A DNA stretch of 64,000 bases from Leptolyngbya sp. FACHB-8 (lineage in GTDB: Bacteria > Cyanobacteriota > Cyanobacteriia > Elainellales > Elainellaceae): positions 62,001-126,000 of the forward strand of contig NZ_JACJOO010000087.1 in NCBI RefSeq assembly GCF_014695575.1, written 5' to 3'. A program made the position numbers and the translations under genes. Shown in pieces: positions 27,612 through 42,278 of this stretch (position 1 is the stretch's first letter; each line of letters starts with the position of its first letter). Under the pieces are notes generated by a model. The model worked only from the letters and a program-made list of their open reading frames with translations. It searched no databases and was not told where the DNA came from.

Positions 27612-27995
27612 TTAAGGCAAAAAATCTACAACCGTTATCTCTTGAATCGTCTTTAACTGTTTATCAGCGGTAATCAAGCTAGCATTTGCCTGAATAGCCG
27701 TAGCTGCAATAATGACATCGGGCAAAGGAAGACGATAGGTTTGTCGCAGTTGGATGATCAAATCTATTAGATCAGGTTGTGCAGGATCTAATCCGAGCGT
27801 TTCAATCTGCTGAAGAAACTGGTTGAAAAGTTGGCGATCGCTCTCGGTTAACCCTGAAAACGACAGGAATTCAAGCTGACTGATAATTGATATCCCAATC
27901 CAATCACTACTTTGAAGCTGTTGCAGCACTTGCTGATTGCCCTGAAGTAAAGCAATCACCGCATTTGTATCGAGCAAGTACCGATTACCAGTCAT
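27612..27995 (-). CDS. VapC-type PIN-domain toxin
   Basis: 127 residues from ATG 27995 (MTGNRYLLDTNAVIALLQGN). PIN-domain acidic residues are in place: D in LLDTNAVI, E in ISIISQLEFL, D in LPLPDVIIAATAI and D in LITADKQL. Such toxins cut RNA, usually initiator tRNA. The gene starts inside the 3' end of the upstream antitoxin gene (11-bp overlap), the usual type II toxin-antitoxin arrangement. Confidence 0.88.
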   Translation of the reverse strand: MTGNRYLLDTNAVIALLQGNQQVLQQLQSSDWIGISIISQLEFLSFSGLTESDRQLFNQFLQQIETLGLDPAQPDLIDLIIQLRQTYRLPLPDVIIAATAIQANASLITADKQLKTIQEITVVDFLP

Positions 27996-28212
27996 CTCTC
28001 GATGCCCGTTGAGTGGCGATCGCATCCCCCTGCCATTGCAGTTTGCCAGCCAAGTTGGAAAAATCGTATTTGGGAGACGGAGCAGTTTGAGGTGCGGCAG
28101 GATTAATAACCAAAACCAACTCAACCTCACCGGGAGGTAAGGCGGTTGGTACATCTAGCCGAAGATGACCATTGGTGTCGATCTGTCCGATCAGAGTTAA
28201 GGTCTGCATCAT
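27985..28212 (-). CDS. Antitoxin partner of the PIN toxin
   Basis: 75 residues from ATG 28212 or 28209; the longer frame to 28248 is not needed. Residues 1-40 look like a small beta-rich binding module (LTLIGQIDTNGHLRLDVPTA, LPPGEVELVLVI). The C-terminal tail, DFSNLAGKLQWQGDAIATQR followed by ASRDDW, resembles the toxin-wrapping segment of cyanobacterial VapC partners. The overlap with the toxin gene gives translational coupling, and these proteins normally repress their own operon. Confidence 0.75.
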   Translation of the reverse strand: MMQTLTLIGQIDTNGHLRLDVPTALPPGEVELVLVINPAAPQTAPSPKYDFSNLAGKLQWQGDAIATQRASRDDW

Positions 28213-28328: not shown

Positions 28329-31300
28329 ATGGCGCGAGACGAAGCCTATCAGGAAGCAGAACGGCGAATTGAAGCAGCCTTTCAGGAAGGAGCTACGGAA
28401 CTTGATTTGAGTGGACTGGGTTTGACGGAGGTGCCAGAGGCGATTGCCTCTCTCACCCAATTGCAATCGCTTAACCTCTCCAACAACGAATTGACGGAAT
28501 TGAAGGCGATTGTATCTCTCACTCAGTTGCAAGAGCTTAACCTCTCGAACAACGAATTGACGGAATTGCCAGAGGCGATCGCATCCTTCACCCAGTTGCA
28601 AGAGCTTTACCTTATTGACAATCAATTGACGGAGCTACCGGAGGCGATCGTATCCCTCACCCAGTTGCAACTTCTTGAGCTCTCTGATAATCAATTTGTA
28701 GAATTACCAAACGTAATTGCTTCTCTCACCCAGCTAAAGACTCTTGTCCTTAATGCGAATAACCTGACCAGCCTACCAGAATGGATTTGCATACTTATAC
28801 AATTAAAGCATTTAGCAGTTGGCGGCAACAAGCTTTCGTCGTTGCCAAATTCATTAAAAGAGCTTACAGAAATTGAACGGCTCTATATTTGGGGAAATCA
28901 GTTCAAGGTCGTACCGAAAGAGTTTAGTTATTTAAGTAAATTAAAAATTCTGAATCTTAGCTCTCTGGAGTTAATAAAGGTTCCTGAGCAAGTTGAAGAA
29001 CTAGCAGAATTAAAGGTTCTTTTACTTAACGAAAATTATATTGTAGACCTGCCTATTTTTTTACATCAGCTCAAGCACTTAAACGAAGTTAAGCTTGATA
29101 ATAATCCTCTGAATCCTGATATTGCTGCCGCTTACGAGCAAGGTACTGAAGCCGTCATGCAATATCTGAGGGCAAGGGCAGAGGGAGAGGTAATGCTGAA
29201 TGAGGCAAAACTGATTTTGGTGGGTGAGGGTGAAGTCGGTAAGAGTTGCTTGTTGGGGGCGCTGCGGGGAGATGAATGGGTCGATGGTCGTCCTACGACT
29301 CATGGAATTGAAATTAAGCCTGTCATTGTCACTGCTTCTAGTAATGGAGCAGAAATTACACTGAATGGTTGGGATTTTGGGGGACAGCGGGTTTATCGTC
29401 CCACGCATCAGCTATTTTTTAGTTCCTCTGCGGTTTATCTGGTGGTGTGGAAGCCACGGGAGGGGCCACAGCAGGGGTTTGTCAAAGAGTGGATTATACT
29501 GATCAAGCATCGGGAGCCTGATGCAAAAGTGCTGGTGGTAGCAACTCATGGTGGCCCTGGACAGCGACAGCCGGATATTGATCGTCAGGAATTGGCTGAC
29601 CTATTCGGCAGCGATACCATCGCGGGATTCTTTCATGTTGATAGCAAGCTGAATACAGGCATTGATGAATTGCAAGACGCAATTGCAAATGTTGCCGCTA
29701 CCCTACCCGGCATGGGTCGCAAGGTTCCCACAAAATGGCAACACATTCGGGAATTGTTGGGAGAATCTGGCAAAACCCACTTGCCTTACAAAGACGTGAT
29801 TGCCCTTTGTGAAGAACAGGGTCTTGAGGGCTTTGCTGCCGAACTGTTTGTTCGCGTATCTCATACTCTGGGATATTTGATCCATTACCACTACGACCCC
29901 ATCCTGCAAGATATTGTCATCCTCAAGCCTGCTTGGTTAGCCAAAGCCATCAGCTTTGTCTTGGATGATGAAACGACTCGGTGCCGTAACGGATTGGTCG
30001 AGTTTGAGTATCTCAGCCAGTTGTGGAGCCATCCTCCCTTTGCAGGAGAAGAGGGTTATCCCAAAGCACTCCATCCGGTATTTCTGCGGCTAATGGAACG
30101 CTTCGATCTGTCCTATAAAGTTATCTTCGATCCAGCTTCTAGAGAAGAAAGCACTACCAGTCTGATTGCCCAACTGGTTTCTGACAATCGCCCTGAGCAA
30201 TTGCTCAATTGGGGTGAACAACCAGACGAGGGAGACAGACAGCAGGTACAAATATGCCGCATCGTTGATGATCGCGGTCAGAGTGCCAATGCAGAAGGAC
30301 TGTTTTACCAACTCATCGTTCGCTTACATAAATACTCGCTAGGACGTACTAACTATGAAAACAGCGTTCACTGGCAACGAGGCCTAATGCTCGATAACGA
30401 TTACAACGGTCGAGCCTTGCTCGAACATATCAGCAACGATATTAGAATTACAGTCCGAGCTGCCTATCCGGAGTTCTTTCTCTATGAGCTGACTAAAGAA
30501 GTGAAGTGGCTCGTTGAGCATTTTTGGGAAGGACTACGGTGTGAGGTGATGGTGCCATGCATCGAACCTTGTGGAAAGGATCAACCAGGCATTGGACTAT
30601 TTGAAGTGCAGAAATTAATTGAGAGCAGACGTCAGGGGATGCCGAAGTTTCCTTGCATGGTTTCTGGCTGTAATCAATGGCTGAATATTGATGATTTGAT
30701 GCGAAATGCACCTACCTCCCGAAAGACTTCTACTGAACAAATGCTTGTTGAAGAACTAGGAACTGTCAGAAATAGGCTGGATAGTATTCGTAGAGACATA
30801 CGTACTCTAGATAACAGGGAGCAACAACGATTTCAGGTACTTAATCAAAATGATCGTCAGCTCTTAAGCCAAGCAGATGAGAGATTTGCAATATTGATGC
30901 AGATGCTTACGGATGAAGCCAAAGATGGCCCGCGCCTGTTCAGCTTCAAGCCCATTGATCCAGGATTTTTCGATCGCCCCACATGGGTTAGCGAAAAATT
31001 TCAACTCACCCTGTGGTGTGAACATTCGCGCAAACCTCTTCCGGTTCTCAATCCTTCAGGTAGCAAACAGGGAGTTTATGAGTTGGAACTCAATCGTGAG
31101 TGGTTTACAAAAGCAGTTCCCTACTTCAAACTGCTAACTGGAACCTTAAGCCTGGTTCTACCCGTTGCCGCTTCAACAACTCAATTCATGCTAGATGATG
31201 CCACCTACAAAGGCATTCAAGAGGAATTAGACCTGGGTCAAAAAAGCCTTGAATTTGGCATCAAAAGCAGTGATATAGCGATCGATTGGCAAAACAAACG

Positions 31301-31472
31301 TGATTCCCTTGAATTTGAACAGGGCGAAGCCGTTCGTGCCCAAGGCTCCATGCTACGAGAACTACACGCAATGCTGAAGGACAAAGATCCAGGTTTTGGT
31401 GGGTTGGTGCGAGTACAGAACAAGCGGCGCGAGTTTCTCTGGGTTCATTCAGATTTTGTAGGCGAGTACTGA
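28329..31472 (+). CDS. LRR-Roco (Roc-COR) GTPase, 1047 aa
   Basis: Residues ~20-265 are leucine-rich repeats of about 23 residues (LTQLQSLNLSNNELTELK and so on). Then comes a Ras-of-complex GTPase: P-loop GEGEVGKS at 299-306, DFGGQ at 349-353, and THGG at ~406 where Ras has NKxD. A COR-like dimerisation region follows (to ~750), then a Cys pair-rich stretch (PCIEPC, PCMVSGC) that may bind zinc, a coiled region (~790-830) and an unrecognised C-terminal domain of about 180 residues. Bacterial Roco proteins cycle between monomer and dimer with nucleotide. The C-terminal domain probably gives the output. Confidence 0.9.
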   Translation: MARDEAYQEAERRIEAAFQEGATELDLSGLGLTEVPEAIASLTQLQSLNLSNNELTELKAIVSLTQLQELNLSNNELTELPEAIASFTQLQELYLIDNQLTELPEAIVSLTQLQLLELSDNQFVELPNVIASLTQLKTLVLNANNLTSLPEWICILIQLKHLAVGGNKLSSLPNSLKELTEIERLYIWGNQFKVVPKEFSYLSKLKILNLSSLELIKVPEQVEELAELKVLLLNENYIVDLPIFLHQLKHLNEVKLDNNPLNPDIAAAYEQGTEAVMQYLRARAEGEVMLNEAKLILVGEGEVGKSCLLGALRGDEWVDGRPTTHGIEIKPVIVTASSNGAEITLNGWDFGGQRVYRPTHQLFFSSSAVYLVVWKPREGPQQGFVKEWIILIKHREPDAKVLVVATHGGPGQRQPDIDRQELADLFGSDTIAGFFHVDSKLNTGIDELQDAIANVAATLPGMGRKVPTKWQHIRELLGESGKTHLPYKDVIALCEEQGLEGFAAELFVRVSHTLGYLIHYHYDPILQDIVILKPAWLAKAISFVLDDETTRCRNGLVEFEYLSQLWSHPPFAGEEGYPKALHPVFLRLMERFDLSYKVIFDPASREESTTSLIAQLVSDNRPEQLLNWGEQPDEGDRQQVQICRIVDDRGQSANAEGLFYQLIVRLHKYSLGRTNYENSVHWQRGLMLDNDYNGRALLEHISNDIRITVRAAYPEFFLYELTKEVKWLVEHFWEGLRCEVMVPCIEPCGKDQPGIGLFEVQKLIESRRQGMPKFPCMVSGCNQWLNIDDLMRNAPTSRKTSTEQMLVEELGTVRNRLDSIRRDIRTLDNREQQRFQVLNQNDRQLLSQADERFAILMQMLTDEAKDGPRLFSFKPIDPGFFDRPTWVSEKFQLTLWCEHSRKPLPVLNPSGSKQGVYELELNREWFTKAVPYFKLLTGTLSLVLPVAASTTQFMLDDATYKGIQEELDLGQKSLEFGIKSSDIAIDWQNKRDSLEFEQGEAVRAQGSMLRELHAMLKDKDPGFGGLVRVQNKRREFLWVHSDFVGEY

Positions 31473-31691: not shown

Positions 31692-32669
31692 ATGATCAGT
31701 GGCATCTTCGAGCATTGTATTGGTTCTCAGCAAGAGCAGCAGACGCTCCGGTACTGGGCAGAGCTAGGGTATCGGGAAATTCAGCGGGGGGAGTTGTCGG
31801 CGGAAGCGGCTCATGCGCTTTATGGGCACGCCTCTAACCTGACATCGATCCGTTTGCAAAATGGGAATTCGGCGGATCATGGCCTGGTTCGCGTCATGAT
31901 TTGGGAGCAACCTCGCAATGAAGGGCTGCAAAAATCACACCCGTTTGTGATTGGTAGCCGATGGTTTGCTTCGTTGGTGCAGGATATCTATGCCGTTGCG
32001 GATGCCTTTAATGATGACAAGGCTAATGGCGGTGATTGGGTTGTGACGGAACCGATTCGAGGCATTGAATTTGTTGGTCAACCCGGTACTAACTTTTATG
32101 AACGATTTACGGGTGTGCGCGAGTTTTTTGTTATTGGCGCAGAAACGCGGCAGGCTTTCTTTCAACGCTACAACTACACACGTCCCGGTTATGGGGTGAT
32201 TGATCCAAGTTCCCCCCTGGGTGTCAGTGAGGGAACGCACTCCAGTATTGTCACAACGGATCATGACACCGTTAGTTTTTACACCGATGTTTTTGGGTTA
32301 GTTTCGGCTAACAATACGAAGAAGCGATCGGGGTATCAAAATCCTGCAACGCGGGAAATTCTAATGTTAGAAGAGGGACAGGAGTTTCTTTTATCGTCAT
32401 TCATGTCACCCAAAACGGATGTAGGGGTTTTACAAGTTTACACACCGCTGTACTCGACACCGAATAAGCTTGAGTTTGCTCAGCCTGGATCACTGGGAAT
32501 TTCTCTTTTTACCTATCAAGTTGATGATATTGAGGAGTTTCGCGATCGCATCACCCACAGCAATGCAAAGTCAGTAACACCAATCCTATCGAATGAGTTT
32601 AATGAACCCTCGTTTGGCTTAGTTGCACCGGATGAGATGACCTGGGTGATTGTTGGACGCAGGGTATGA
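31692..32669 (+). CDS. VOC/glyoxalase-superfamily protein (325 aa)
   Basis: Two VOC-like halves can be recognised. The first (residues ~8-100) starts FEHCIGSQQEQQTLRYWAEL; the second (~185-320) has THSSIVTTDHDTVSFYTDVF, MLEEGQEFLLSSF and GISLFTYQVDDIEEFRDRIT. Possible metal ligands are the His and Asp in TTDHD and a late Glu. This fold covers dioxygenases, isomerases and antibiotic-binding proteins, so the reaction is open. It stands next to the amidohydrolase group and reads towards it. Its stop codon is the first codon of a 99-bp tandem duplication. Confidence 0.72.
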   Translation: MISGIFEHCIGSQQEQQTLRYWAELGYREIQRGELSAEAAHALYGHASNLTSIRLQNGNSADHGLVRVMIWEQPRNEGLQKSHPFVIGSRWFASLVQDIYAVADAFNDDKANGGDWVVTEPIRGIEFVGQPGTNFYERFTGVREFFVIGAETRQAFFQRYNYTRPGYGVIDPSSPLGVSEGTHSSIVTTDHDTVSFYTDVFGLVSANNTKKRSGYQNPATREILMLEEGQEFLLSSFMSPKTDVGVLQVYTPLYSTPNKLEFAQPGSLGISLFTYQVDDIEEFRDRITHSNAKSVTPILSNEFNEPSFGLVAPDEMTWVIVGRRV

Positions 32670-32949: not shown

Positions 32950-34428
32950 CTAGAGGTTTTGCGATCGCCTCAGATAACGTCCTTGTGGCGAACCCAGTAT
33001 CTCTCCGCGATCGTAAATCAGATTCCCGCGCAGAAATGTGTGCTTGACTCGGCCGGTTAACTCCATCCCTTCAAAAGGCGTATAGCCCTGCTGTGAAGGA
33101 GATTCGGCCGCACGTACCACAAAACTTTCAGTGGGATCTAGCAGTACCAGGTCGGCATCGTAGCCGATCGCAATATCACCCTTTTGAAACAGTCCAAACC
33201 GCTGAGCCGGATTCCAACTGAGGAGCCTGGCCATGTGATTGTAGGACATACCCCGCTTGCTGCCTTCGCTGACAATGCCGGAGAGCAAGTATTCTGTCCC
33301 TCCAAAACCAGACTTTGCCAACCAAATATTGTCTGGATCGTTAAGGCTGGCTTTTTGCTCTGCTGAACAGCAGGCATGGTCGCTGACAATCCAATCCACC
33401 TGATCTTGCAAAACGGCATTCCATAAGTACTCGACGTCGGCTCGGGGGCGAATGGGAGGATTGACCTTGGCCCATTTCCCGGTGGGCGCATTCACGTCTA
33501 GCAGGAGGTGACCCACCGTGACTTCTCGCCGGAAGTTGATGTGGGGAAAGGTGGTTTGCATCATCAGGGCCGCTTCGACAGCTTTGCGGGAACTGAGATG
33601 GAGTAAGTTAATATTGGCGCAATTCGTTTCATGGGCGAGATAGGAGGCAATGCAAATGGCGAGTCCTTCTGAATGGGGTGGACGAGCTGCGCTGTAGGCA
33701 TTTAGACCCGTTAGGGACGAATCTTGCTGCACGATTTTGGTGTAGGCATTGAGAATATCCGCCACTTCACAGTGAAGGCTGAGGCTGATGGAGTCTTGCA
33801 GGTTGGGGTAGCGCTCCCTTAGCCGAGTCAGCCCTCGCATAATGAATTCAAAATGGGCAAAGTCGTAGCGATCGCCCTCCTGAATCATCAAAAACAAATT
33901 TTGTTGATTGGATAGCCCATGCAACCCATACCCACCATAAAACATAAAGATTTTGAATGAAGCGACCCCATGTTCTTCATACAGCCACTCTATCTCGTCG
34001 ATGTGTTGAGGGGCGATCGGTGCAATGTGATAGCCATAATCCACAAAAAAGTTGCCGTCGGATAAGGCCAGCACTTCTGGGAAGAAATCTTTGTAGGAAC
34101 CGCCTTTATTCAAGTAATACTGGCCGGTGCGGATATAGTTGAGGCTGGTGGTGACTCCGCCCATGGCGGCAGCTTTGGTTTCGGCGATCGCATCCTGTCT
34201 TAGCTCTTGATAAATGCCAATATGCATGTGAGCATCAACAACCCCTGGAAAGCCCAGGAGATTTTGAGCATCAAATACCTCCTTAGCCTGGTCTGGGCTA
34301 ATTTCTGGTGCGATTTGACTGAATTTACCGTCCTTAATGCCCACATCCAGGCGATCGACGGATGATTTATGGGGTCGAACCACCCGCACGTTTTTGATCA
34401 ATCTATCTAGAGTGGGGGTTGTAGACAT
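32950..34428 (-). CDS. Cyclic-amide amidohydrolase (hydantoinase/dihydropyrimidinase family)
   Basis: 492 residues from ATG 34428 with GAGG close by. All metal ligands of the group are seen: HxH in VVDAHMHIGIY, carboxylated Lys in ASFKIFMFYGG, His in SLSLHCEVAD and INLLHLSSRKA, Asp in WIVSDHACC. The fold is that of dihydropyrimidinase, D-hydantoinase and allantoinase. It faces away from the hydroxylase gene across a 190-bp promoter region. The neighbouring nitrilase-fold protein and aldehyde dehydrogenase suggest a reductive-pyrimidine-like or related cyclic-amide pathway, but the true substrate is unknown. Confidence 0.9.
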   Translation of the reverse strand: MSTTPTLDRLIKNVRVVRPHKSSVDRLDVGIKDGKFSQIAPEISPDQAKEVFDAQNLLGFPGVVDAHMHIGIYQELRQDAIAETKAAAMGGVTTSLNYIRTGQYYLNKGGSYKDFFPEVLALSDGNFFVDYGYHIAPIAPQHIDEIEWLYEEHGVASFKIFMFYGGYGLHGLSNQQNLFLMIQEGDRYDFAHFEFIMRGLTRLRERYPNLQDSISLSLHCEVADILNAYTKIVQQDSSLTGLNAYSAARPPHSEGLAICIASYLAHETNCANINLLHLSSRKAVEAALMMQTTFPHINFRREVTVGHLLLDVNAPTGKWAKVNPPIRPRADVEYLWNAVLQDQVDWIVSDHACCSAEQKASLNDPDNIWLAKSGFGGTEYLLSGIVSEGSKRGMSYNHMARLLSWNPAQRFGLFQKGDIAIGYDADLVLLDPTESFVVRAAESPSQQGYTPFEGMELTGRVKHTFLRGNLIYDRGEILGSPQGRYLRRSQNL

Positions 34429-34616
34429 AACACCTCTTGCCGGAAGCCGTTGTAAATTCACGTCAATTGTGAAACCCTACTTCTACCCCTTTAATGTGGA
34501 ATTAGGGTTCACATTGACACAAAGCTAGACATCATTTTTTCTTACGTTGCTCAAAATAAAACTTTTAGAATGAAATTATAACGGCTTCATTTCACACAGA
34601 TTCAGGAGAAAAGATT
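34429..34616. promoter_or_regulatory. Divergent promoter region amidohydrolase / hydroxylase
   Basis: 188 bp between two genes reading apart. The stretch CTTTAATGTGGAATTAGGGT and the AT-rich ACTTTTAGAATGAAATTATA lie towards the hydroxylase gene; the latter has a TATAAT-like -10. No clear operator palindrome. Confidence 0.4.
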
Positions 34617-35417
34617 ATGGAAGAATTTAACGAGTATCATTTAGACCCCCAGCAGTTTCCTTTCCTCAACACGTTGCAGGAAAACTGGCAGACGATTCGA
34701 GATGAATTTACATTTTTTAAGAACAAAGCATCTGAGGAAGAGCTGAGATTTGCCCATGAGGTGATGGGACCAAAAAGTAAAACGGTGAAAACGAAAGGCA
34801 CTGCAAAATACAGCGCGTTTGGTGTTCTATTTCAAGGGTTGCTGATTGAGGATTATATCCGAGTACATCAAATTAAACACCCTGAATACGATGGGGAAAA
34901 TGTTGCAGAAAAAGTTTTTCAGTTAAGAGAAAGATATTTTCCGAAACTGAGCGAAATCATCGAAAAAACAAATTCAACTAACGATAACATTCTCAGGAAT
35001 GTGTATTATGGAACCTTTCATCCAGGGCTAGATGTGAAGCTACATGTGAACTATAACCTGCACACAAATCGTGGCTATTTGGGGCTGATTGTGCCTGAGG
35101 GAGATATTGCCATGAAAATTTGCCATGACACGTTTTATTGGCATGAAGGCGAATTTATGGTGTTAGACCACAGCTATCCCCACTGTCCCCATAACTACAC
35201 GGAGCACGAGAGAACGGTTTTGGTTGTAGATTTCTTCAAACCCGATAAACCTAGAGAAGATGTGATCCGAATGGAACAGGAATTCGTTGAGGAGCGGATG
35301 CAAGAGAACCCTTACAGCCTGGGTGTTTTTGGTAAGAATGATAAAGCTCAAGTGGAAGACTTTGTTAAATATGGTTTGAGCCACCAATTGGAATGGGATA
35401 AAGCATTAAACACGTGA
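34617..35417 (+). CDS. Aspartyl/asparaginyl beta-hydroxylase-like Fe(II)/2-oxoglutarate oxygenase
   Basis: 266 residues, AGGAG before the ATG. The second half is the Asp_Arg_Hydrox jelly roll: YYGTFHPGLDVKLHVNYNLH, TNRGYLGLIVPEGDIAMKIC, WHEGEFMVLDHSYPHCPHNY, then TEHERTVLVVDFFKP. The first metal His (HPGLDVKLH or NYNLH), the second in DHSYPHCPHN, and the Arg of ERTVLVVDF that binds 2-oxoglutarate are all there. Bacterial relatives hydroxylate amino acids or peptides, or small lipids. The nitrilase-like gene follows after 7 bp, so they are one operon. Confidence 0.87.
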   Translation: MEEFNEYHLDPQQFPFLNTLQENWQTIRDEFTFFKNKASEEELRFAHEVMGPKSKTVKTKGTAKYSAFGVLFQGLLIEDYIRVHQIKHPEYDGENVAEKVFQLRERYFPKLSEIIEKTNSTNDNILRNVYYGTFHPGLDVKLHVNYNLHTNRGYLGLIVPEGDIAMKICHDTFYWHEGEFMVLDHSYPHCPHNYTEHERTVLVVDFFKPDKPREDVIRMEQEFVEERMQENPYSLGVFGKNDKAQVEDFVKYGLSHQLEWDKALNT

Positions 35418-35424
35418 ATTGAAT

Positions 35425-36468
35425 ATGGAACACGTTGCTACTACTGAGGCATACCGAGCGTTGGCGCTTCAGTTGACCTGTCATGCCATTAATCAGGCAA
35501 GCGATCGCCAGGAAGCCCGCACTCTAATGCAGCAGGCGATCGCCCGCATCGGCTCTCAAATCGCGGCCAGTATTGCGTTTATCGGGGCTGATTGTCGCTT
35601 GGTTGTGCTGCCAGAGTATTTCCTGACTGGCTTTCCATTGGGCGAACCATTCGCGGTTTGGGCTGATAAGGCCTGCTTGGAGATAGGAGGAGCCGAGTAT
35701 GAAGCCCTCGGGCAGATTGCTCAAAAGCATCGCATCTTCTTAGCAGGGAATGCTTACGAACTCGATCCACACTTTCCAAAGCTGTACTTTCAAACCTGCT
35801 TTGTGATCGATCCGAGCGGCAACGTCGTCCTGCGCTACCGACGCTTAAACTCCATGTTTGCGCCCACTCCCCATGATGTGTGGGATGAGTATCTGGAGCA
35901 TTACGGCCTGGAAGGGGTTTTCCCTGTAGTGAAGACGGAGATTGGGAATTTGGCCGCGATCGCCTCCGATGAAATCCTGTTCCCAGAAGTTGCTCGCTGT
36001 TTGATGATGCGGGGTGCGGAGGTGTTTCTGCACATGACCTCAGAGGTTTATGGGAGTAAGGAGCGATCGCCCAAAGACGTTGCCAAAATCAGCCGTGCGA
36101 TTGAAAACATGGCTTACGTCGTTTCCGCCAATACGGCAGGTATTGCCCAAATTCCCATCCCGATCGCCTCGGCTGATGGAGGTTCTAAAATCATTGATTA
36201 TCGCGGGCTGGTGTTAGCCGAAACCGCTACCGGCGAAAGCATGGCTGCCTTTGCGGAAATTGATCTGGCCGCCCTACGCCGTTACCGTCGTCGCCCCGGA
36301 TTAACCAACTTGCTTTCTCGACAACGCTTTGAACTGTATGCTGAGAGCTACCGTCAGGCACAGTTTTATCCGGCTAATACGATGCTTGATGGGGAGGGCG
36401 ATCGCAAGCACTTCATGCAAACCCAGCAGCAGACGATCGAACATTTAGCCAACTCAGATGTGATTTAA
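35425..36468 (+). CDS. Nitrilase-superfamily protein with substituted catalytic Cys and Lys
   Basis: 347 residues from ATG 35425; a TTG two codons earlier is possible. The carbon-nitrogen hydrolase fold is clear: catalytic Glu in LVVLPEYFLTG, then LRYRRLNSMFAP, then AAIASDEILFPEVARCL. In active members the second block has Lys (Y-R-K) and the third has Cys six residues before Pro-Glu. Here these positions are Arg (Y-R-R) and Ser. So two of the three catalytic residues differ. It may be a binding or scaffold protein, or an enzyme with another mechanism. Between the hydroxylase and the aldehyde dehydrogenase. Confidence 0.83.
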   Translation: MEHVATTEAYRALALQLTCHAINQASDRQEARTLMQQAIARIGSQIAASIAFIGADCRLVVLPEYFLTGFPLGEPFAVWADKACLEIGGAEYEALGQIAQKHRIFLAGNAYELDPHFPKLYFQTCFVIDPSGNVVLRYRRLNSMFAPTPHDVWDEYLEHYGLEGVFPVVKTEIGNLAAIASDEILFPEVARCLMMRGAEVFLHMTSEVYGSKERSPKDVAKISRAIENMAYVVSANTAGIAQIPIPIASADGGSKIIDYRGLVLAETATGESMAAFAEIDLAALRRYRRRPGLTNLLSRQRFELYAESYRQAQFYPANTMLDGEGDRKHFMQTQQQTIEHLANSDVI

Positions 36469-36514
36469 GGGATGGGTGCGAAGCCTCATTCCTCCAAATA
36501 GGGAGCTATCAGCT

Positions 36515-37924
36515 ATGGATACCTCAATAGGTGTTCGCAACCCCCGCACAGGCCAGGTTGATTACCACATCACACCACCTATCCCAGACGAGCTGACAGA
36601 GCTGTGTGGTGGCTTACGCAACGCTCAAGTGGACTGGCAGCAGAAGGGATTGGATGCCCGAATTGAAGCATTACAGCAATGGAAACAGGCTGTTCAGGCA
36701 CAACGGGATGAGCTGATTGAGGCATTGGTCGCAGATACGGGTCGGCTCGGTGTTTCTGTACTAGAAGTTGATTCCTTTTTAGGAAGCCTCGATCGCTGGT
36801 GCCATATAGCTCCTGAGCTATTGCAGGGCGAGGAACGGAACACGGCCATTCCCTTTATTCGATTACAGCAGACCGCTGTTCCCTATCCTCTGGTGGGGGT
36901 CATTAGTCCCTGGAACTTTCCACTCTTACTCTCCACAATCGATACGATTCCGGCTCTGTTAGCAGGCTGTGCGGTTGTGGTGAAGCCTAGTGAAATTGCG
37001 CCGCGTTTCTTGAAGCCGTTAATGGAGGCGATCGCCTCAGTTCCCGCACTCCAATCCGTCCTCACCTACATTGAGGGGGCTGGAGAAACGGGCGCTGATT
37101 TAATCGAACAGGTAGACTTAATTTGCTTCACAGGCAGTGTAGCAACGGGGCGTAAGGTAGCCAGTGCAGCGGCTCAAAAATTCATTCCCGCGTTTCTGGA
37201 GTTAGGCGGCAAAGATCCCGCGATTGTTCTTGACTCGGCGGATTTAGAATTAGCCACCTCCGCGCTTTTATGGGGGTCGGTGGTCAACACGGGGCAATCC
37301 TGCTTGTCGATTGAGCGAATTTATGTGGCTGATTCAATCGTTGAACCCTTTGTTGATCGGCTGGTGAACAAGGCCAAAGAACTTCAGCTCGCCTACCCTA
37401 CGGTGAAGGACGGGCCGATTGGCCCCATTATTGCCGAACGACAGGCCACCATTATTTCTGAGCATTTAGAAGATGCGTTTGCGAAAGGGGCGATCGCTCA
37501 CTGCGGCGGCAGAGTAGAAACCTTAGAAGGCGGCTTATGGTGTCGTCCAACCGTACTCACGAATGTTAATCACTCGATGAAGGTGATGACCGAAGAGACG
37601 TTTGCGCCTATCATGCCCGTGATGCCCTTCTCTTCTGTTGAAGAAGCGATCGCGCTAGCAAATGACACGATTTATGGGCTGAGTGCTGCTGTCTTTGCAG
37701 GGACAGAGGGGGAGGCGATCGCGATCGCAGAACAGTTGGATGCTGGAGCCATCAGCATCAATGATGCCGCACTTACAGCCATCATGCATGAGGGTGAGAA
37801 AAATGCTTTTAAATTCTCAGGTATGGGCGGTTCCCGTATGGGCGCGGCAGCCTTGAGGCGGTTTATGCGTAGGAAGGCGTTGTTGATTAAGACGGGGGCG
37901 ATCGCGGACCCCTGGTGGTTTTAA
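36515..37924 (+). CDS. NAD(P)-dependent aldehyde dehydrogenase
   Basis: 469 residues from ATG 36515 with AGGGAG upstream; a longer frame to 36476 is not supported. Family blocks: GVISPWNFPLLLSTIDTIPA, the Rossmann loop FTGSVATGRKVA, Glu in FLELGGKDPAIVLDSA, catalytic Cys in NTGQSCLSIERIYV, and EETFAPIMPVMPF. Converts an aldehyde to an acid (or acyl-CoA). It is 46 bp after the nitrilase-like gene, fourth gene of the group. Substrate unknown; a semialdehyde is a reasonable guess. Confidence 0.93.
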   Translation: MDTSIGVRNPRTGQVDYHITPPIPDELTELCGGLRNAQVDWQQKGLDARIEALQQWKQAVQAQRDELIEALVADTGRLGVSVLEVDSFLGSLDRWCHIAPELLQGEERNTAIPFIRLQQTAVPYPLVGVISPWNFPLLLSTIDTIPALLAGCAVVVKPSEIAPRFLKPLMEAIASVPALQSVLTYIEGAGETGADLIEQVDLICFTGSVATGRKVASAAAQKFIPAFLELGGKDPAIVLDSADLELATSALLWGSVVNTGQSCLSIERIYVADSIVEPFVDRLVNKAKELQLAYPTVKDGPIGPIIAERQATIISEHLEDAFAKGAIAHCGGRVETLEGGLWCRPTVLTNVNHSMKVMTEETFAPIMPVMPFSSVEEAIALANDTIYGLSAAVFAGTEGEAIAIAEQLDAGAISINDAALTAIMHEGEKNAFKFSGMGGSRMGAAALRRFMRRKALLIKTGAIADPWWF

Positions 37925-38023: not shown

Positions 38024-38470
38024 ATGTCTAACATCCGCGAAGAAATGCCTGTTCTTGCCCGCCATGAAGGGGAGTGGTTTGGCACCTATACTCTGATTGA
38101 TGCAACGGCGAAAATCCTTGACCAGCACGAAGCCCGCTTATCCTGTCAGTTTCCTCAGGAAGGCGAGTATGATTACTATCAAATCAATCGCTATACCTGG
38201 ACAAATGGTAAGCAGGAGGAACACCAGTTTCCTGGCATCTACCGCGACAAAAAACTGTGGTTTGACACCGATCGGATTCAGGGACAGGCATGGGAAGCTG
38301 ATGATACAACGGTTATCCTCAAGTTCTCCTACAAAACCATTCCAGACTTTTACCTCTATGAAATGATTCAAATTAGTCCTTGCAACAATCACCGCACCCG
38401 CACCTGGCACTGGTTTAAGAATCATCAACTGTTTCAGCGCACGCTAATTCAGGAAGAACGGCACCATTAA
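38024..38470 (+). CDS. DUF3598-like lipocalin-type protein (148 aa)
   Basis: Conserved-looking pattern: MPVLARHEGEWFGTYTLIDA, LSCQFPQEGEYDYYQINRYT, FPGIYRDKKLWFDTDRI, and the end MIQISPCNN followed by RTRTWHWFKN. The alternating strands fit a small calycin/lipocalin-like barrel as in DUF3598. Such proteins bind small hydrophobic ligands or pigments. Located 100 bp after the aldehyde dehydrogenase and probably the end of that operon. Family call moderately sure, function not known. Confidence 0.65.
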   Translation: MSNIREEMPVLARHEGEWFGTYTLIDATAKILDQHEARLSCQFPQEGEYDYYQINRYTWTNGKQEEHQFPGIYRDKKLWFDTDRIQGQAWEADDTTVILKFSYKTIPDFYLYEMIQISPCNNHRTRTWHWFKNHQLFQRTLIQEERHH

Positions 38471-38500: not shown

Positions 38501-39388
38501 TCAATCTGCATAGGACAAGACGGTTCCCGATTGGGATAAATCTCTGTCCACTCGAATGAAGAATAAACAGCCGTCTTCGGAAATGTGTCTGAGAGACGTG
38601 GTGAAGCTGGGGACATAGCCATAGTGGCCCTTGAGGAATCGATAGTTGCCAATATCGCAATATCCTGCCAGACAATATGCTTCTTCGTTATAGGACTGAA
38701 TCATCGCCTGCCTCCCGTCATAATGGGGCAGGATAGCGAGTAACCACGTTCCTCCACCATTCGCGGCTTTTCTCAGCCACTTCTTGCTCGATTCGAAAAA
38801 CTGCGTCGTGTCAGTTCTTCCCCAGGAGAGCAATTTACTGTCTAATGCGGGAATAAAATCACGCATCCTGGCATTTGGATGATTTTCCGCATCCTGATAC
38901 TGCAAGTTACCGTTTGCCATCCATAAAATTTCTGCTGCTTCACCATTTAAGGTCTTCCATGGCCCGACTCTGACGCCTGCTGGAATGAAGGAGTAGCTGT
39001 CTTTGCCCAGTTTCCAATCTCCCATCTGGATAGCGCCACTGAGCACAAAAATTTCCAGATCTGCGGTAAATCTGCCTGCAGGTATTTCAAATTGAGAAGG
39101 CAGTAAAACCTTGACGGTAGATGCGCCATTGTCATGCCAGGAAAGCACCCGGCCAGTAGCTGTGACAGTTTTGGGTACACCATGAACCTGCCATGGTTGT
39201 TTGGGAACCGGATCGCTGTCGAAATACTGATATTGACGAGGGAGATATTTTGACGTGATAGCTGTACATCGCCCAGATAAATGCATCCGGCTCTGACCAT
39301 CACCACCCCAATCCTCTGGGACTAAATTTGTATTTAAATCGTCTGCTAATGGAGATATAGATGAAGATGGTTGGTTTTGTTCACCCAT
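38501..39388 (-). CDS. Cupin-type protein (DUF4437-like), 295 aa
   Basis: Two beta-barrel halves are visible: residues ~70-165 (VKVLLPSQFEIPAGRFTADL, EIFVLSGAIQMGDWKLGKDS, YSFIPAGVRVGPWKTLNGEA) and ~205-295 (LAILPHYDGRQAMIQSYNEE, AYCLAGYCDIGNYRFLKGHY). The first has the cupin order G(X)5...E.FVL.G........YSFIPAG but few His, so metal binding is uncertain. Convergent with the DUF3598-like gene across 30 bp. Possibly an enzyme or binding protein of the local pathway. Confidence 0.6.
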   Translation of the reverse strand: MGEQNQPSSSISPLADDLNTNLVPEDWGGDGQSRMHLSGRCTAITSKYLPRQYQYFDSDPVPKQPWQVHGVPKTVTATGRVLSWHDNGASTVKVLLPSQFEIPAGRFTADLEIFVLSGAIQMGDWKLGKDSYSFIPAGVRVGPWKTLNGEAAEILWMANGNLQYQDAENHPNARMRDFIPALDSKLLSWGRTDTTQFFESSKKWLRKAANGGGTWLLAILPHYDGRQAMIQSYNEEAYCLAGYCDIGNYRFLKGHYGYVPSFTTSLRHISEDGCLFFIRVDRDLSQSGTVLSYAD

Positions 39389-39669: not shown

Positions 39670-40683
39670 ATGCAATCCGGCACCTATAAAAAGCTTGTTG
39701 TTAAACAGTTCAGCTCGGATTTTCAATCGGCGATCGCCATTGAAGAACTCCCCATCCCCACCCCAAACTCTGACGAGCTTCTGATTCGCAACAAATTTGC
39801 TGGCGTTAATGCCGGATTTGATACCCTTCTTTGCCAGGGGAACGTACCCTATGTGAACCTCACCCCCCCCTTCGATCTGGGTGTTGAAGCGGTAGGTGAG
39901 ATCGTGGCAATCGGTGATGCTGTAGACGGTTTTGACGTTGGAAATGCGGTTGCAACCATAGCGCGAGGGGGAGGTTATCGAGAGTATCAAGTTGTGCCGG
40001 CCCACCTTGCGGTCAAGATTTCTGAGGCCATTCCAGAAATCCTGACATTAATGCCGACAGGAATATCGGCTCTCGTGGCGTTAGAGCAGGCGGGGGAAAT
40101 GCGCAGTCAGGAAACCGTATTAGTGACCGCTGCTGCTGGGGGAACCGGACACATTGCCGTACAACTAGCAAAGCTGGCCGGAAATCATGTGATTGGCACT
40201 TGCGGGTCAGAGGCCAAAGCTCAACTTTTGCAGGAATTAGGGTGCGATCGCATCATCAACTACCACCAGGAAGATCTACATGGCGTTTTGCAAAATGAAT
40301 ATCCTAACGGCATAAATTTGGTGTTCGATTGTGTAGGCAGCACCGTCTTTGATACCTGTGTTGAGAATTTAGCCGTGCGAGGACGGTTAGTAAGTATTGG
40401 TTTTATCTCAGAATATGCCAAAGCTCCTCAACCCATTCTTCAGCCTCGTATTTATCACAAGCTTTTTTGGAAAGCAGCTTCAGTGCGGGCGTTTCTCATG
40501 CCGCATTATGCAGAGTATATGGTTGAGGCGCGCGATCGCCTCCTCGATCTGTTCTATTCCCAAAAAATTCGTGTTGCCATCAACCCAACCCCGTTTTATG
40601 GGATTGAATCCATTCCAACTGCCGTTAATTACCTCCTAACTGGGAAAAACGTAGGCAAGGTGGTAGTTCAGTTTTATAGGTAG
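39670..40683 (+). CDS. Medium-chain dehydrogenase/reductase (quinone reductase/PTGR3-like)
   Basis: 337 residues. N-terminal GroES-like domain (IEELPIPTPNSDELLIRNKF, FAGVNAGFDTLLCQG, PFDLGVEAVGEIVAIGDAVD) lacks the zinc-binding Cys/His set, so it is a zinc-free MDR. The Rossmann domain has VTAAAGGTGHIAVQLAKLAG and GTCGSEAKAQLLQELGCDRI, pointing to NADPH. These proteins reduce activated double bonds or quinones. The stop is 4 bp before a perfect 37-bp palindrome. Confidence 0.88.
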   Translation: MQSGTYKKLVVKQFSSDFQSAIAIEELPIPTPNSDELLIRNKFAGVNAGFDTLLCQGNVPYVNLTPPFDLGVEAVGEIVAIGDAVDGFDVGNAVATIARGGGYREYQVVPAHLAVKISEAIPEILTLMPTGISALVALEQAGEMRSQETVLVTAAAGGTGHIAVQLAKLAGNHVIGTCGSEAKAQLLQELGCDRIINYHQEDLHGVLQNEYPNGINLVFDCVGSTVFDTCVENLAVRGRLVSIGFISEYAKAPQPILQPRIYHKLFWKAASVRAFLMPHYAEYMVEARDRLLDLFYSQKIRVAINPTPFYGIESIPTAVNYLLTGKNVGKVVVQFYR

Positions 40684-40687
40684 TTTC

Positions 40688-40764
40688 ACCTTTCCAGGCT
40701 TCAAAGAATTGATACTGCCGTCGCTTAGCGACGGCAGTATCAATTCTTTGAAGCCTGGAAAGGT
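40688..40764. terminator. Perfect 37-bp palindrome sealing two convergent genes
   Basis: Arms 40688-40724 and 40728-40764 pair without mismatch around TTA (apex GTCGCTTAGCGAC). It fills the whole gap between the MDR stop and the LRR-kinase stop codon (40764-40766). Probably a two-way terminator. Confidence 0.9.
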
Positions 40765-42077
40765 CAGCTGATCGCCCCCAAAACATCACAGATTTTTGTA
40801 AACGTAGGGCGCATAGGTGGAACAGGGTTCATGCAGGCTTGCTGTAAGGTGCGCAGGCGATCGCACACCCCCACATCTCCATCACCCACAACACAGCGAT
40901 CCAGCAAATCCTCAAGCAAACATCCAAAGGCTCTGACCTCGATATATTCCAGCGATGAGGCAATGTCTGAAATGCTGGATGGATAGAAGGATGCGGCTCC
41001 AAAATCCCCCAGTAGACTTTCTCCCTGGGAGTTGACCAGAATGTTGTGGGCGTACAGATCGCCGTGAGTAATGCCTCTGGCGTGAAGGTGGGCAGCTACA
41101 GCCGCTATGCCCTGGGCAATCTGGAGAATAACTGGCACTGAAAAAGAGGCGTCAGAGGGATAAGTATCTCGGGTGCAGGTGTCGAAGCTGGGAGGGTTAC
41201 CAAGGACTTTGTAGGTGGGGGGAACGAATGTAAAGAGCAGCCCTGCCTTCTGTTCAGGATGATTTTTCACCTTGCCCAATAGCCTGACCAAATTGGGGTG
41301 AGTGCCAGCGGCAATGCACGATCGCATCTCATCCAGCGGAAGCCCATCACTTGTGACTTTTCCTTTGAATACTTTGATGGCAACATCTACATTTTGCGTG
41401 GATTTAGTGGCCCAGGCTCCCTTGGAAATAACACCAGAGGCTCCTTCTCCTAAGGTACTTTCGATGCTTAGGTCAGCCCAATCCACTTCCTCCAGAGGTG
41501 CTTCCGATGAGGATTGCTCACAAAATGGATTTCCGGAGAACGCGAGCCAGGATAGACGGGGTAGGCTGAACAACCAGGAGGGAAGTGTTGTGAGTTGATT
41601 GGCTGAGATGCGAACCAGTTCCAGGTTTTGGCAGGCGGCCATTTCTTCGGGGAGCGATCGCAACTGATTTCCCGCCAGCATGAGTTTTTGCAATTGGCTT
41701 AACTGCCCGAAGGATGTGGGGAGTTGCTCAATTTGATTGTCGGTGAGAATGAGCCAGCGGACAGAGGAAGGGAGAGAGTTTTCGGCGATCGCTCTAATTT
41801 TGTTTGACTTGAAGCCCACCATGGAAAGATTGGGGCATTGAGATAGCACAGCGGGCAATTCTTCAAAGTTGTTGTTACTGAAGAAAGCGATTCTGAGCTT
41901 CTGTAATTGACCAAAGTTATCTGGCAACGATTTCAGGTGATTGTGGGTGAGATTTAAGATCTCCAGGGAATCTGCGAGGTCAAAAATCTCTGCTGGAAAC
42001 TCGGTTAGGTTAGCTGCCAAATCCAGTCTTTTACTTCCCTTTAGTTGCCCAGATTGTAATGCTTTTAGTGTTTCCAT
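40764..42077 (-). CDS. Leucine-rich-repeat protein kinase
   Basis: 437 residues from ATG 42077 (METLKALQSGQLKGSKRLDL); the frame is open to 42254 but without family sequence. LRRs fill residues ~15-185 (DSLEILNLTHNHLKSLP, WLILTDNQIEQLP). A eukaryote-like kinase domain follows: Gly loop LGEGASG 209-215, VAIK Lys235, the short catalytic loop GITHGDLYAHNILV (H338-G-D340, N345), and GDFG at 357-360. HGD instead of HRD is common in this bacterial kinase group. All residues for phosphotransfer are present. Cytoplasmic, no membrane helix. Its ligand and target are unknown. Confidence 0.9.
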   Translation of the reverse strand: METLKALQSGQLKGSKRLDLAANLTEFPAEIFDLADSLEILNLTHNHLKSLPDNFGQLQKLRIAFFSNNNFEELPAVLSQCPNLSMVGFKSNKIRAIAENSLPSSVRWLILTDNQIEQLPTSFGQLSQLQKLMLAGNQLRSLPEEMAACQNLELVRISANQLTTLPSWLFSLPRLSWLAFSGNPFCEQSSSEAPLEEVDWADLSIESTLGEGASGVISKGAWATKSTQNVDVAIKVFKGKVTSDGLPLDEMRSCIAAGTHPNLVRLLGKVKNHPEQKAGLLFTFVPPTYKVLGNPPSFDTCTRDTYPSDASFSVPVILQIAQGIAAVAAHLHARGITHGDLYAHNILVNSQGESLLGDFGAASFYPSSISDIASSLEYIEVRAFGCLLEDLLDRCVVGDGDVGVCDRLRTLQQACMNPVPPMRPTFTKICDVLGAIS

Positions 42078-42278
42078 GTGCACGGAATGAATAGAGGACA
42101 ACATTAGGTTTTCTCTCAGACATCTCCTGAGACCAGTGAGTAAGCAGTAACCATCGCCATTTATAACGTTTCTCCATGATTTGTGAAATGTTTTTTGAGA
42201 CGTAAGTTGAGCTAAAAGATGGCATAGCCTTTTGGGTTTTATGTTGAATGGCAACTGCTCACTTACAACTTCAATAAC

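What the first reader, a model, noticed from the sequence alone, without database searches (positions are those of the whole stretch)
32950..37924. Divergent amidohydrolase / hydroxylase / nitrilase-fold / aldehyde dehydrogenase group
A hydantoinase-family enzyme faces an operon of an Asp/Asn-hydroxylase-like oxygenase, a nitrilase-fold protein and an aldehyde dehydrogenase. Hydantoinase plus a nitrilase-fold amidase plus an ALDH parallels reductive pyrimidine breakdown, but no dihydropyrimidine dehydrogenase is here, and the nitrilase lacks its nucleophile. The 2-oxoglutarate oxygenase has no place in that pathway. The set may degrade or build another cyclic amide.
Basis: partly seen in the sequence, partly recalled or inferred. 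Interest (0 to 1): 0.52.

Follow-up and report, generated by a model that had tools for sequence, protein, structure and literature searches.

The report
Unknown cyanobacterial ring-opening enzyme pathway

Summary
The four genes are real: a hydantoinase-family ring opener (HYD), an AspH-like 2-oxoglutarate oxygenase (ASPH), a nitrilase-fold protein (NIT) and an aldehyde dehydrogenase (ALDH). DUF3598, DUF4437 and a quinone-oxidoreductase-like gene (QOR) continue the cluster to 40683. In 242 cyanobacterial genomes HYD occurs in 20, ASPH in 19 and NIT in 19. All ASPH and NIT genomes lie inside the HYD set, as do all 17 QOR and 10 DUF4437 genomes and 19 of 20 DUF3598 genomes, although several genomes scatter the genes over 2 to 5 loci. 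This is co-inheritance, not chance adjacency. The four-gene row itself is peculiar to this genome; the conserved units are HYD<>ASPH (divergent) and NIT>ALDH(>DUF3598). The latter unit also occurs in the actinobacterium Nonomuraea. NIT has Ser for the catalytic Cys and Arg for the Lys in 35 of 35 close members, so this is a stable clade and not decay. Pyrimidine breakdown is not supported. Best reading: a catabolic or detoxifying pathway in which HYD opens a cyclic imide, lactam or ureide. Substrate unknown; confidence 0.45. A chlorophyll/bilin-breakdown version is attractive, but RCC-reductase does not co-occur. I found no paper describing the set.

The parts
32950..34461 (-). HYD: cyclic amidohydrolase of the hydantoinase/allantoinase/dihydroorotase superfamily, complete set of metal ligands (likely start ATG at 34428)
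   Evidence: conserved DAHxH, SFK, SLHCE, LLHLSS, SDHACC across 72 sequences
34462..34616 (.). Intergenic region between the divergent HYD and ASPH genes, with inverted repeats (TGTGAAACC / GGGTTCACA, 34468-34476 and 34505-34513) and an AGGAGAAAAG ribosome-binding-type site before ASPH
   Evidence: AGGAGAAAAG present upstream of ASPH in 36 of 80 loci
34617..35417 (+). ASPH: AspH-like 2-oxoglutarate oxygenase (PF05118) with two conserved His and the 2-oxoglutarate-binding Arg
35419..36468 (+). NIT: nitrilase-fold protein with Glu66-Arg142-Ser183 in place of Glu-Lys-Cys (likely start ATG at 35425)
36476..37924 (+). ALDH: aldehyde dehydrogenase, catalytic residues present (likely start ATG at 36515); close relative of solved structure 4h7n
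38024..38470 (+). DUF3598: small beta-barrel protein, nitrobindin/phycobilin-lyase/spirocyclase-like fold
38501..39388 (-). DUF4437 cupin-like protein, relative of solved structure 2qdr
39670..40683 (+). QOR: zinc-type medium-chain dehydrogenase / quinone oxidoreductase (PIG3-like)
31692..32669 (+). Probable further member: 325-aa VOC/glyoxalase-like protein, weak Pfam match, found near NIT in several other genomes
   Evidence: PF00903 E 0.0045, below cut-off

Best explanation
The genes encode one co-inherited pathway, most likely a catabolic or detoxifying route for a small cyclic amide (imide, lactam or ureide). Shown: the genes share one phyletic pattern and keep fixed sub-clusters. Inferred: HYD, a two-metal hydrolase, opens the ring; ASPH (Fe/2-oxoglutarate) hydroxylates substrate or product; QOR, and in many genomes SnoaL-like, cupin, VOC-like, RidA and alpha/beta-hydrolase proteins, reshape the carbon skeleton; ALDH oxidises a resulting aldehyde; the DUF3598 barrel binds a hydrophobic intermediate or isomerises it. 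NIT is not an ordinary amidase: its Glu-Arg-Ser centre is conserved, so it either does another reaction or acts as a binding or partner subunit for ALDH and DUF3598, with which it travels even into an actinobacterium.
For: Phyletic sets in the same 242 genomes: NIT 19, ASPH 19, HYD 20, QOR 17, DUF4437 10, DUF3598 20. NIT, ASPH, QOR and DUF4437 are all inside the HYD set; DUF3598 shares 19 (hypergeometric P 1e-10 to 1e-27 among these six, not corrected for relatedness; HYD in 15 of 119 genera). In G152 the genes sit at about 0.065 Mb (HYD/ASPH), 1.26 (QOR), 4.90 (DUF3598), 5.02 (NIT) and 5.14 Mb (DUF4437), yet all are present. NIT-ALDH within 1000 bp in 20 of 20 NIT loci of the first set and 18 of 18 of the second. 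ALDH-DUF3598-NIT contiguous in Nonomuraea at 53, 43 and 53% identity, near NMT1-type binding proteins. HYD at 57% identity on a Rhodococcus plasmid among CoA transferases, RipB/RipC-like enzymes, acyl-CoA dehydrogenase, hydantoinase A/B and amidase genes, a catabolic setting. Catalytic residues of HYD, ASPH and ALDH conserved.
Against: No substrate evidence of any kind. HYD scores below the NCBIfam cut-off of every named family listed, so the ring type is a guess. The Rhodococcus RipB/RipC-like proteins are also below their cut-offs. NIT lacks the residues that would finish an amide-hydrolysis route. The Nonomuraea set sits near an O-methyltransferase and an FAD monooxygenase-type protein, which would suit biosynthesis as well. 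HYD and NIT have separate contexts outside cyanobacteria. One genome (G147) keeps NIT, ALDH, DUF3598, DUF4437 and QOR but has only a remnant of HYD and no ASPH, so the two halves can part.
Confidence: 0.45

Rival explanations
1. The genes make, rather than break, a small specialised metabolite: HYD run in reverse closes a ring, ASPH hydroxylates, ALDH, NIT and DUF3598 finish the scaffold (some solved neighbours of the DUF3598 fold are spirocyclases).
For: Patchy distribution, 15 of 119 genera; variable accessory oxidoreductases; DUF3598 fold near spirocyclases OssO/OlmO, Z 15.1 and 14.2; O-methyltransferase and FAD monooxygenase-type protein near the Nonomuraea set; dedicated Cys-less NIT.
Against: I recognised no PKS, NRPS, ribosomal-peptide or prenyl core enzyme among the recurring neighbours (judged by inspection, Pfam was run only on the members listed); the Rhodococcus HYD relative sits in a catabolic-looking cluster.
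Confidence: 0.3
2. The pathway breaks down tetrapyrroles (chlorophyll or bilins) or their maleimide fragments: RCC-reductase and a PaO-like Rieske oxygenase open and reduce, DUF3598 carries a bilin, HYD opens the maleimide, and an arylmalonate-decarboxylase/maleate-isomerase-family protein follows.
For: RCC-reductase (PF06405) on the same piece as NIT in 7 of 20 NIT loci; PaO-type Rieske protein (c22) in 8 of 81 sources and Amdase-family protein (c55) in 3; DUF3598 fold near phycobilin lyase CpeS, Z 13.6.
Against: RCC-reductase is absent from this genome and only 2 of its 12 genomes fall in the HYD set, P 0.26. The fold match is a common one; fatty-acid-binding proteins score 11 to 12 in the same list.
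Confidence: 0.12
3. Reductive pyrimidine catabolism or a close variant.
For: The trio of hydantoinase-like, nitrilase-fold and ALDH proteins.
Against: No dihydropyrimidine dehydrogenase over cut-off in the genome (46.8 of 335 bits); HYD 197.5 of 393.25 bits for dihydropyrimidinase; NIT lacks Cys and Lys; ASPH has no role there.
Confidence: 0.03
4. Unrelated genes that happen to be neighbours.
For: Gene order varies and this exact order was found only in the window.
Against: Shared phyletic pattern even in genomes where the genes are unlinked.
Confidence: 0.02

Closest known systems
D-hydantoinase / allantoinase / dihydroorotase (cyclic amidohydrolases; e.g. PDB 1nfg, 3hm7)
   Same: Same superfamily and metal-site motifs; Tyr five residues after the bridging Lys as in the aligned D-hydantoinase
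   Different: Below the NCBIfam cut-off of each family; KVNPP motif resembles dihydroorotases (recalled) although the aligned hydantoinase reads FTPP; substrate unknown
AspH-type aspartyl/asparaginyl beta-hydroxylase (PF05118; PDB 5apa, 5jqy)
   Same: Pfam match over cut-off; both iron-binding His and a C-terminal Arg aligned
   Different: Only about 100 residues align; HxN in place of AspH's HxG; far below OlsC and LpxO cut-offs
Aliphatic amidase / formamidase branch of the nitrilase superfamily (PDB 2uxy, 2e2k)
   Same: CN_hydrolase fold family, Glu of the triad kept
   Different: Lys to Arg and Cys to Ser in 35 of 35 close members
PDB 4h7n aldehyde dehydrogenase (from Anabaena variabilis, recalled)
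   Same: Aligned over 471 residues, E 4.5e-227; the ALDH orthologues in other loci lie next to NIT
   Different: No published function found for it (0 papers)
PDB 2qdr (DUF4437) and 3dmc (NTF2-like)
   Same: Close relatives of two cluster members
   Different: 2qdr is listed as an uncharacterized protein; no function is given for 3dmc
DUF3598 proteins and nitrobindin / CpeS / spirocyclase barrels (PDB 2o62, 5yvf, 7sfp, 4tq2)
   Same: Same barrel fold, Z 13.6 to 18.1
   Different: Sequence identity 8 to 17%; fold alone gives no ligand

Membership tests
Reductive pyrimidine catabolism | Dihydropyrimidine dehydrogenase present in the genome | tested here: not met
   Best match 46.8 bits against a cut-off of 335
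Reductive pyrimidine catabolism | Dihydropyrimidinase equivalog score | tested here: not met
   197.5 of 393.25 bits
Reductive pyrimidine catabolism | Active beta-ureidopropionase (nitrilase fold with Cys) | tested here: not met
   Ser at the Cys position in the window's NIT; other nitrilases of the genome were not examined for this role
Cyclic amidohydrolase superfamily (HYD) | Metal ligands HxH, Lys, His, His, Asp | tested here: met
   Conserved in the alignment of 72 sequences; motif roles recalled
Cyclic amidohydrolase superfamily (HYD) | Score over the allantoinase, hydantoinase or dihydroorotase cut-off | tested here: not met
   Best 234.9 of 357.85 bits
Nitrilase superfamily (NIT) | CN_hydrolase domain | tested here: met
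   107.3 bits against 23.2
Nitrilase superfamily (NIT) | Glu-Lys-Cys catalytic triad | tested here: not met
   Glu-Arg-Ser in 35 of 35 close members
AspH-like 2-oxoglutarate oxygenase (ASPH) | PF05118 over cut-off, iron-binding His pair and 2-oxoglutarate Arg | tested here: met
   residue roles recalled
AspH-like 2-oxoglutarate oxygenase (ASPH) | Hydroxylase activity | not testable with these tools
   Needs an assay
Aldehyde dehydrogenase (ALDH) | Aldedh domain, GQSC Cys and ELGG Glu | tested here: met
   351.3 bits; conserved in 38 sequences
Chlorophyll-breakdown pathway | RCC-reductase inherited with the set | tested here: not met
   2 of 12 RCC-reductase genomes fall in the HYD set; absent in the window's genome
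Phycobilin lyase / nitrobindin barrel (DUF3598) | Barrel fold | tested here: met
   Model pLDDT 93.2; CpeS Z 13.6, nitrobindin Z up to 14.7
Phycobilin lyase / nitrobindin barrel (DUF3598) | Binding of a bilin or heme | not testable with these tools
   Needs protein

The most novel reading that the evidence does not exclude
Cyanobacteria carry an undescribed, horizontally mobile pathway that dismantles ring-cleavage products of their own tetrapyrrole pigments (maleimide- or lactam-type fragments), in which a nitrilase-fold enzyme with a Glu-Arg-Ser centre has been recruited to a new reaction working with ALDH and a bilin-lyase-like barrel.
Probability: 0.08. Interest if true: 0.85.

Novelty: new variant of a known kind. 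Interest (0 to 1): 0.5.

Why it matters
Co-inheritance of genes that are scattered in several genomes is stronger evidence for a pathway than adjacency alone. Three of the proteins have close relatives of known structure (4h7n, 2qdr, 3dmc) whose function I could not find, and this context gives them a shared one to test. A nitrilase-fold lineage that keeps Glu but has fixed Arg and Ser across two phyla is a good test case for how this superfamily acquires new chemistry. The set can be tested by knockout in culturable Nostocales.

Tried and rejected
Pyrimidine catabolism: rejected. Chlorophyll breakdown: looked promising from neighbourhoods but failed the co-occurrence test; kept as a rival. 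Cytokinin-dehydrogenase-like flavoenzyme beside HYD in 3 loci (label by eye) and the FAD protein beside Rhodococcus HYD: none of the 14 other Rhodococcus proteins tested matched the cyanobacterial loci, and that FAD protein is flavocytochrome c/TcuA-like, so there is no shared oxidase. A regulator-type motif was looked for upstream of ASPH, NIT, QOR and DUF3598: the recurring words are a ribosome-binding-type site or look like close-relative conservation; nothing common to all was seen. AlphaFold model of NIT: mean pLDDT 47.4, unusable, no fold search made. SnoaL-like protein: 39 of 242 genomes, not specific, and this genome's copy is only 48% identical and unlinked. Extra members from isolated loci: none new found. 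Literature: searches gave no paper on this set; only passages of PMC10151467 were read, the rest were seen as listings with abstract openings. Absence from print is claimed only for those ten searches.

More distant NIT relatives (28-33% identity, plus one ordinary nitrilase at 26%) do not share Ser: of 7 rows, 4 have Ala, 2 Cys and 1 Gly at the position. In the 80 ASPH loci, 12 showed no HYD on the piece held, several of them on short contigs or near an end. DUF3598 was not found in G091, whose NIT contig is only 3119 bases, and a 79-residue piece of DUF3598 occurs outside the set in G189. NIT is missing in G176; its contig ends just after DUF3598, and an ALDH fragment lies at the end of the same-length named contig (L042), so I read that as an assembly gap.
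Full report
What is there. The window lies in a cyanobacterial genome of 6.93 Mb (G000; the phylum is inferred from its relatives). HYD (32950-34461, -) faces ASPH (34617-35417, +), followed by NIT (35419-36468), ALDH (36476-37924) and a DUF3598 protein (38024-38470) on the same strand, then DUF4437 (38501-39388, -) and a quinone-oxidoreductase-like protein, QOR (39670-40683, +). A 325-aa protein at 31692-32669 is VOC-like by a weak Pfam match below the cut-off.

Conserved neighbourhood. A search with ASPH gave 111 encoding stretches, 80 of them kept as loci, with cyanobacterial names. HYD is on the same piece in 68 of the 80, divergent in 67 of those, and within 500 bp in 59. NIT is on 20 of the 80 pieces, always with ALDH within 1000 bp; ALDH appears without NIT on four more pieces. 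Recurrent further neighbours by cluster or Pfam are SnoaL-like, alpha/beta hydrolase, RidA, BKACE, DUF1838, SDR and, in some, RCC-reductase and a PaO-type Rieske protein. The direct ASPH-NIT arrangement is this genome's own: 31 loci hold both, 2 being this locus, and the other 29 have them 1.5 to 9.5 kb apart.

Co-inheritance. In the same draw of 242 genomes of the class (at least 90% complete asked for), with strict E-value limits chosen per gene: NIT 19, ASPH 19, HYD 20, QOR 17, DUF4437 10, DUF3598 20, SnoaL-like 39, RCC-reductase 12. NIT, ASPH, QOR and DUF4437 are all subsets of the HYD set; DUF3598 shares 19. Hypergeometric probabilities run from 1e-10 to 1e-27 among these six, and are 0.26 for HYD with RCC-reductase. 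They ignore relatedness; by genus HYD is in 15 of 119, and the same-genus relative G001 lacks all six. Several genomes have the genes on separate contigs or megabases apart (G050, G101, G128, G152, G200, G217, G226, G091), so linkage alone does not explain the pattern. G147 has only a HYD remnant (residues 259-500, two stops) and no ASPH, and keeps the rest.

Transfer. For all six genes G101 (of another family) is a nearer relative of this genome than the same-family genomes G005 and G023, and so is G050 wherever it has the gene. Joint horizontal transfer would explain this; no housekeeping control was run.

Catalytic residues. HYD keeps the metal-ligand motifs in 72 aligned sequences, ASPH keeps its His pair and Arg in 87, ALDH its Cys and Glu in 38 (columns at least 98% identical; residue roles recalled). 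NIT has Glu-Arg-Ser in 35 of 35 close members including Nonomuraea; 7 more distant rows have Ala (4), Cys (2) or Gly (1) at that position. NIT is thus a stable Cys-less branch, not a decayed gene.

Outside cyanobacteria. In the plasmid collection NIT's best match is Nonomuraea gerenzanensis at 53%, where ALDH, DUF3598 and NIT lie contiguous on one strand near NMT1-type binding proteins, an O-methyltransferase and an FAD monooxygenase-type protein. HYD's best matches are a Streptomyces and a Rhodococcus gordoniae plasmid at 57%. The Rhodococcus gene sits among CoA transferases, itaconate-degradation-like RipB/RipC proteins, acyl-CoA dehydrogenase, hydantoinase A/B, amidase and cyclase-family genes (all below equivalog cut-offs), a catabolic setting. 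ASPH found only remote PF05118 relatives there, 23 to 30% identical in 6 records.

DUF3598. The model (pLDDT 93.2) is a beta barrel closest to BFA1, DUF3598 2o62, spirocyclases, nitrobindins and CpeS, so a hydrophobic-ligand role is plausible; the fold shows no specific ligand.

Reading. That this is one pathway is well supported (about 0.95 by my judgement). That it is degradative and turns on ring opening by HYD is inference (0.45). The closest known route, reductive pyrimidine breakdown, fails three tests. A tetrapyrrole-fragment version is the most exciting reading but the co-occurrence test does not back it.

Limits. The substrate, direction, regulation and NIT's reaction are unknown. E-value limits were not varied. 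The solved structures 4h7n, 2qdr and 3dmc are cited from a sequence search only.

Noticed in passing
27612-28154 (-): PIN-domain protein (PF01850, 46.2 bits), possibly a VapC-type toxin; partner not looked for.
   Followed up: no
28329-31472 (+): 1047-aa protein with leucine-rich repeats and a Ras-like GTPase segment, ROCO-like by eye.
   Followed up: no
40764-42254 (-): Leucine-rich repeats followed by what looks like a protein kinase domain (by eye), next to the cluster.
   Followed up: no
G000:C74:47881-48351 (outside the window, same genome): A second PF05118 protein in the genome, a far stronger match to the family (185.7 bits) than the window's ASPH (68.7 bits).
   Followed up: no
L147, L148, L150, L151: Nitrilase-fold proteins from haloarchaea, Tsukamurella and Flammeovirga plasmids with Ala at the Cys position and a shared PHDV/PHDL motif: a wider Cys-less group worth study.
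   Followed up: partly
L137 (G147:C1, about 1443290-1444021): HYD remnant with two stops and ASPH missing, while NIT, ALDH, DUF3598, DUF4437 and QOR remain.
   Followed up: partly
L055, L064, L105: A cytokinin-dehydrogenase-like FAD protein lies between HYD and ASPH in three Scytonema loci (label by eye).
   Followed up: partly
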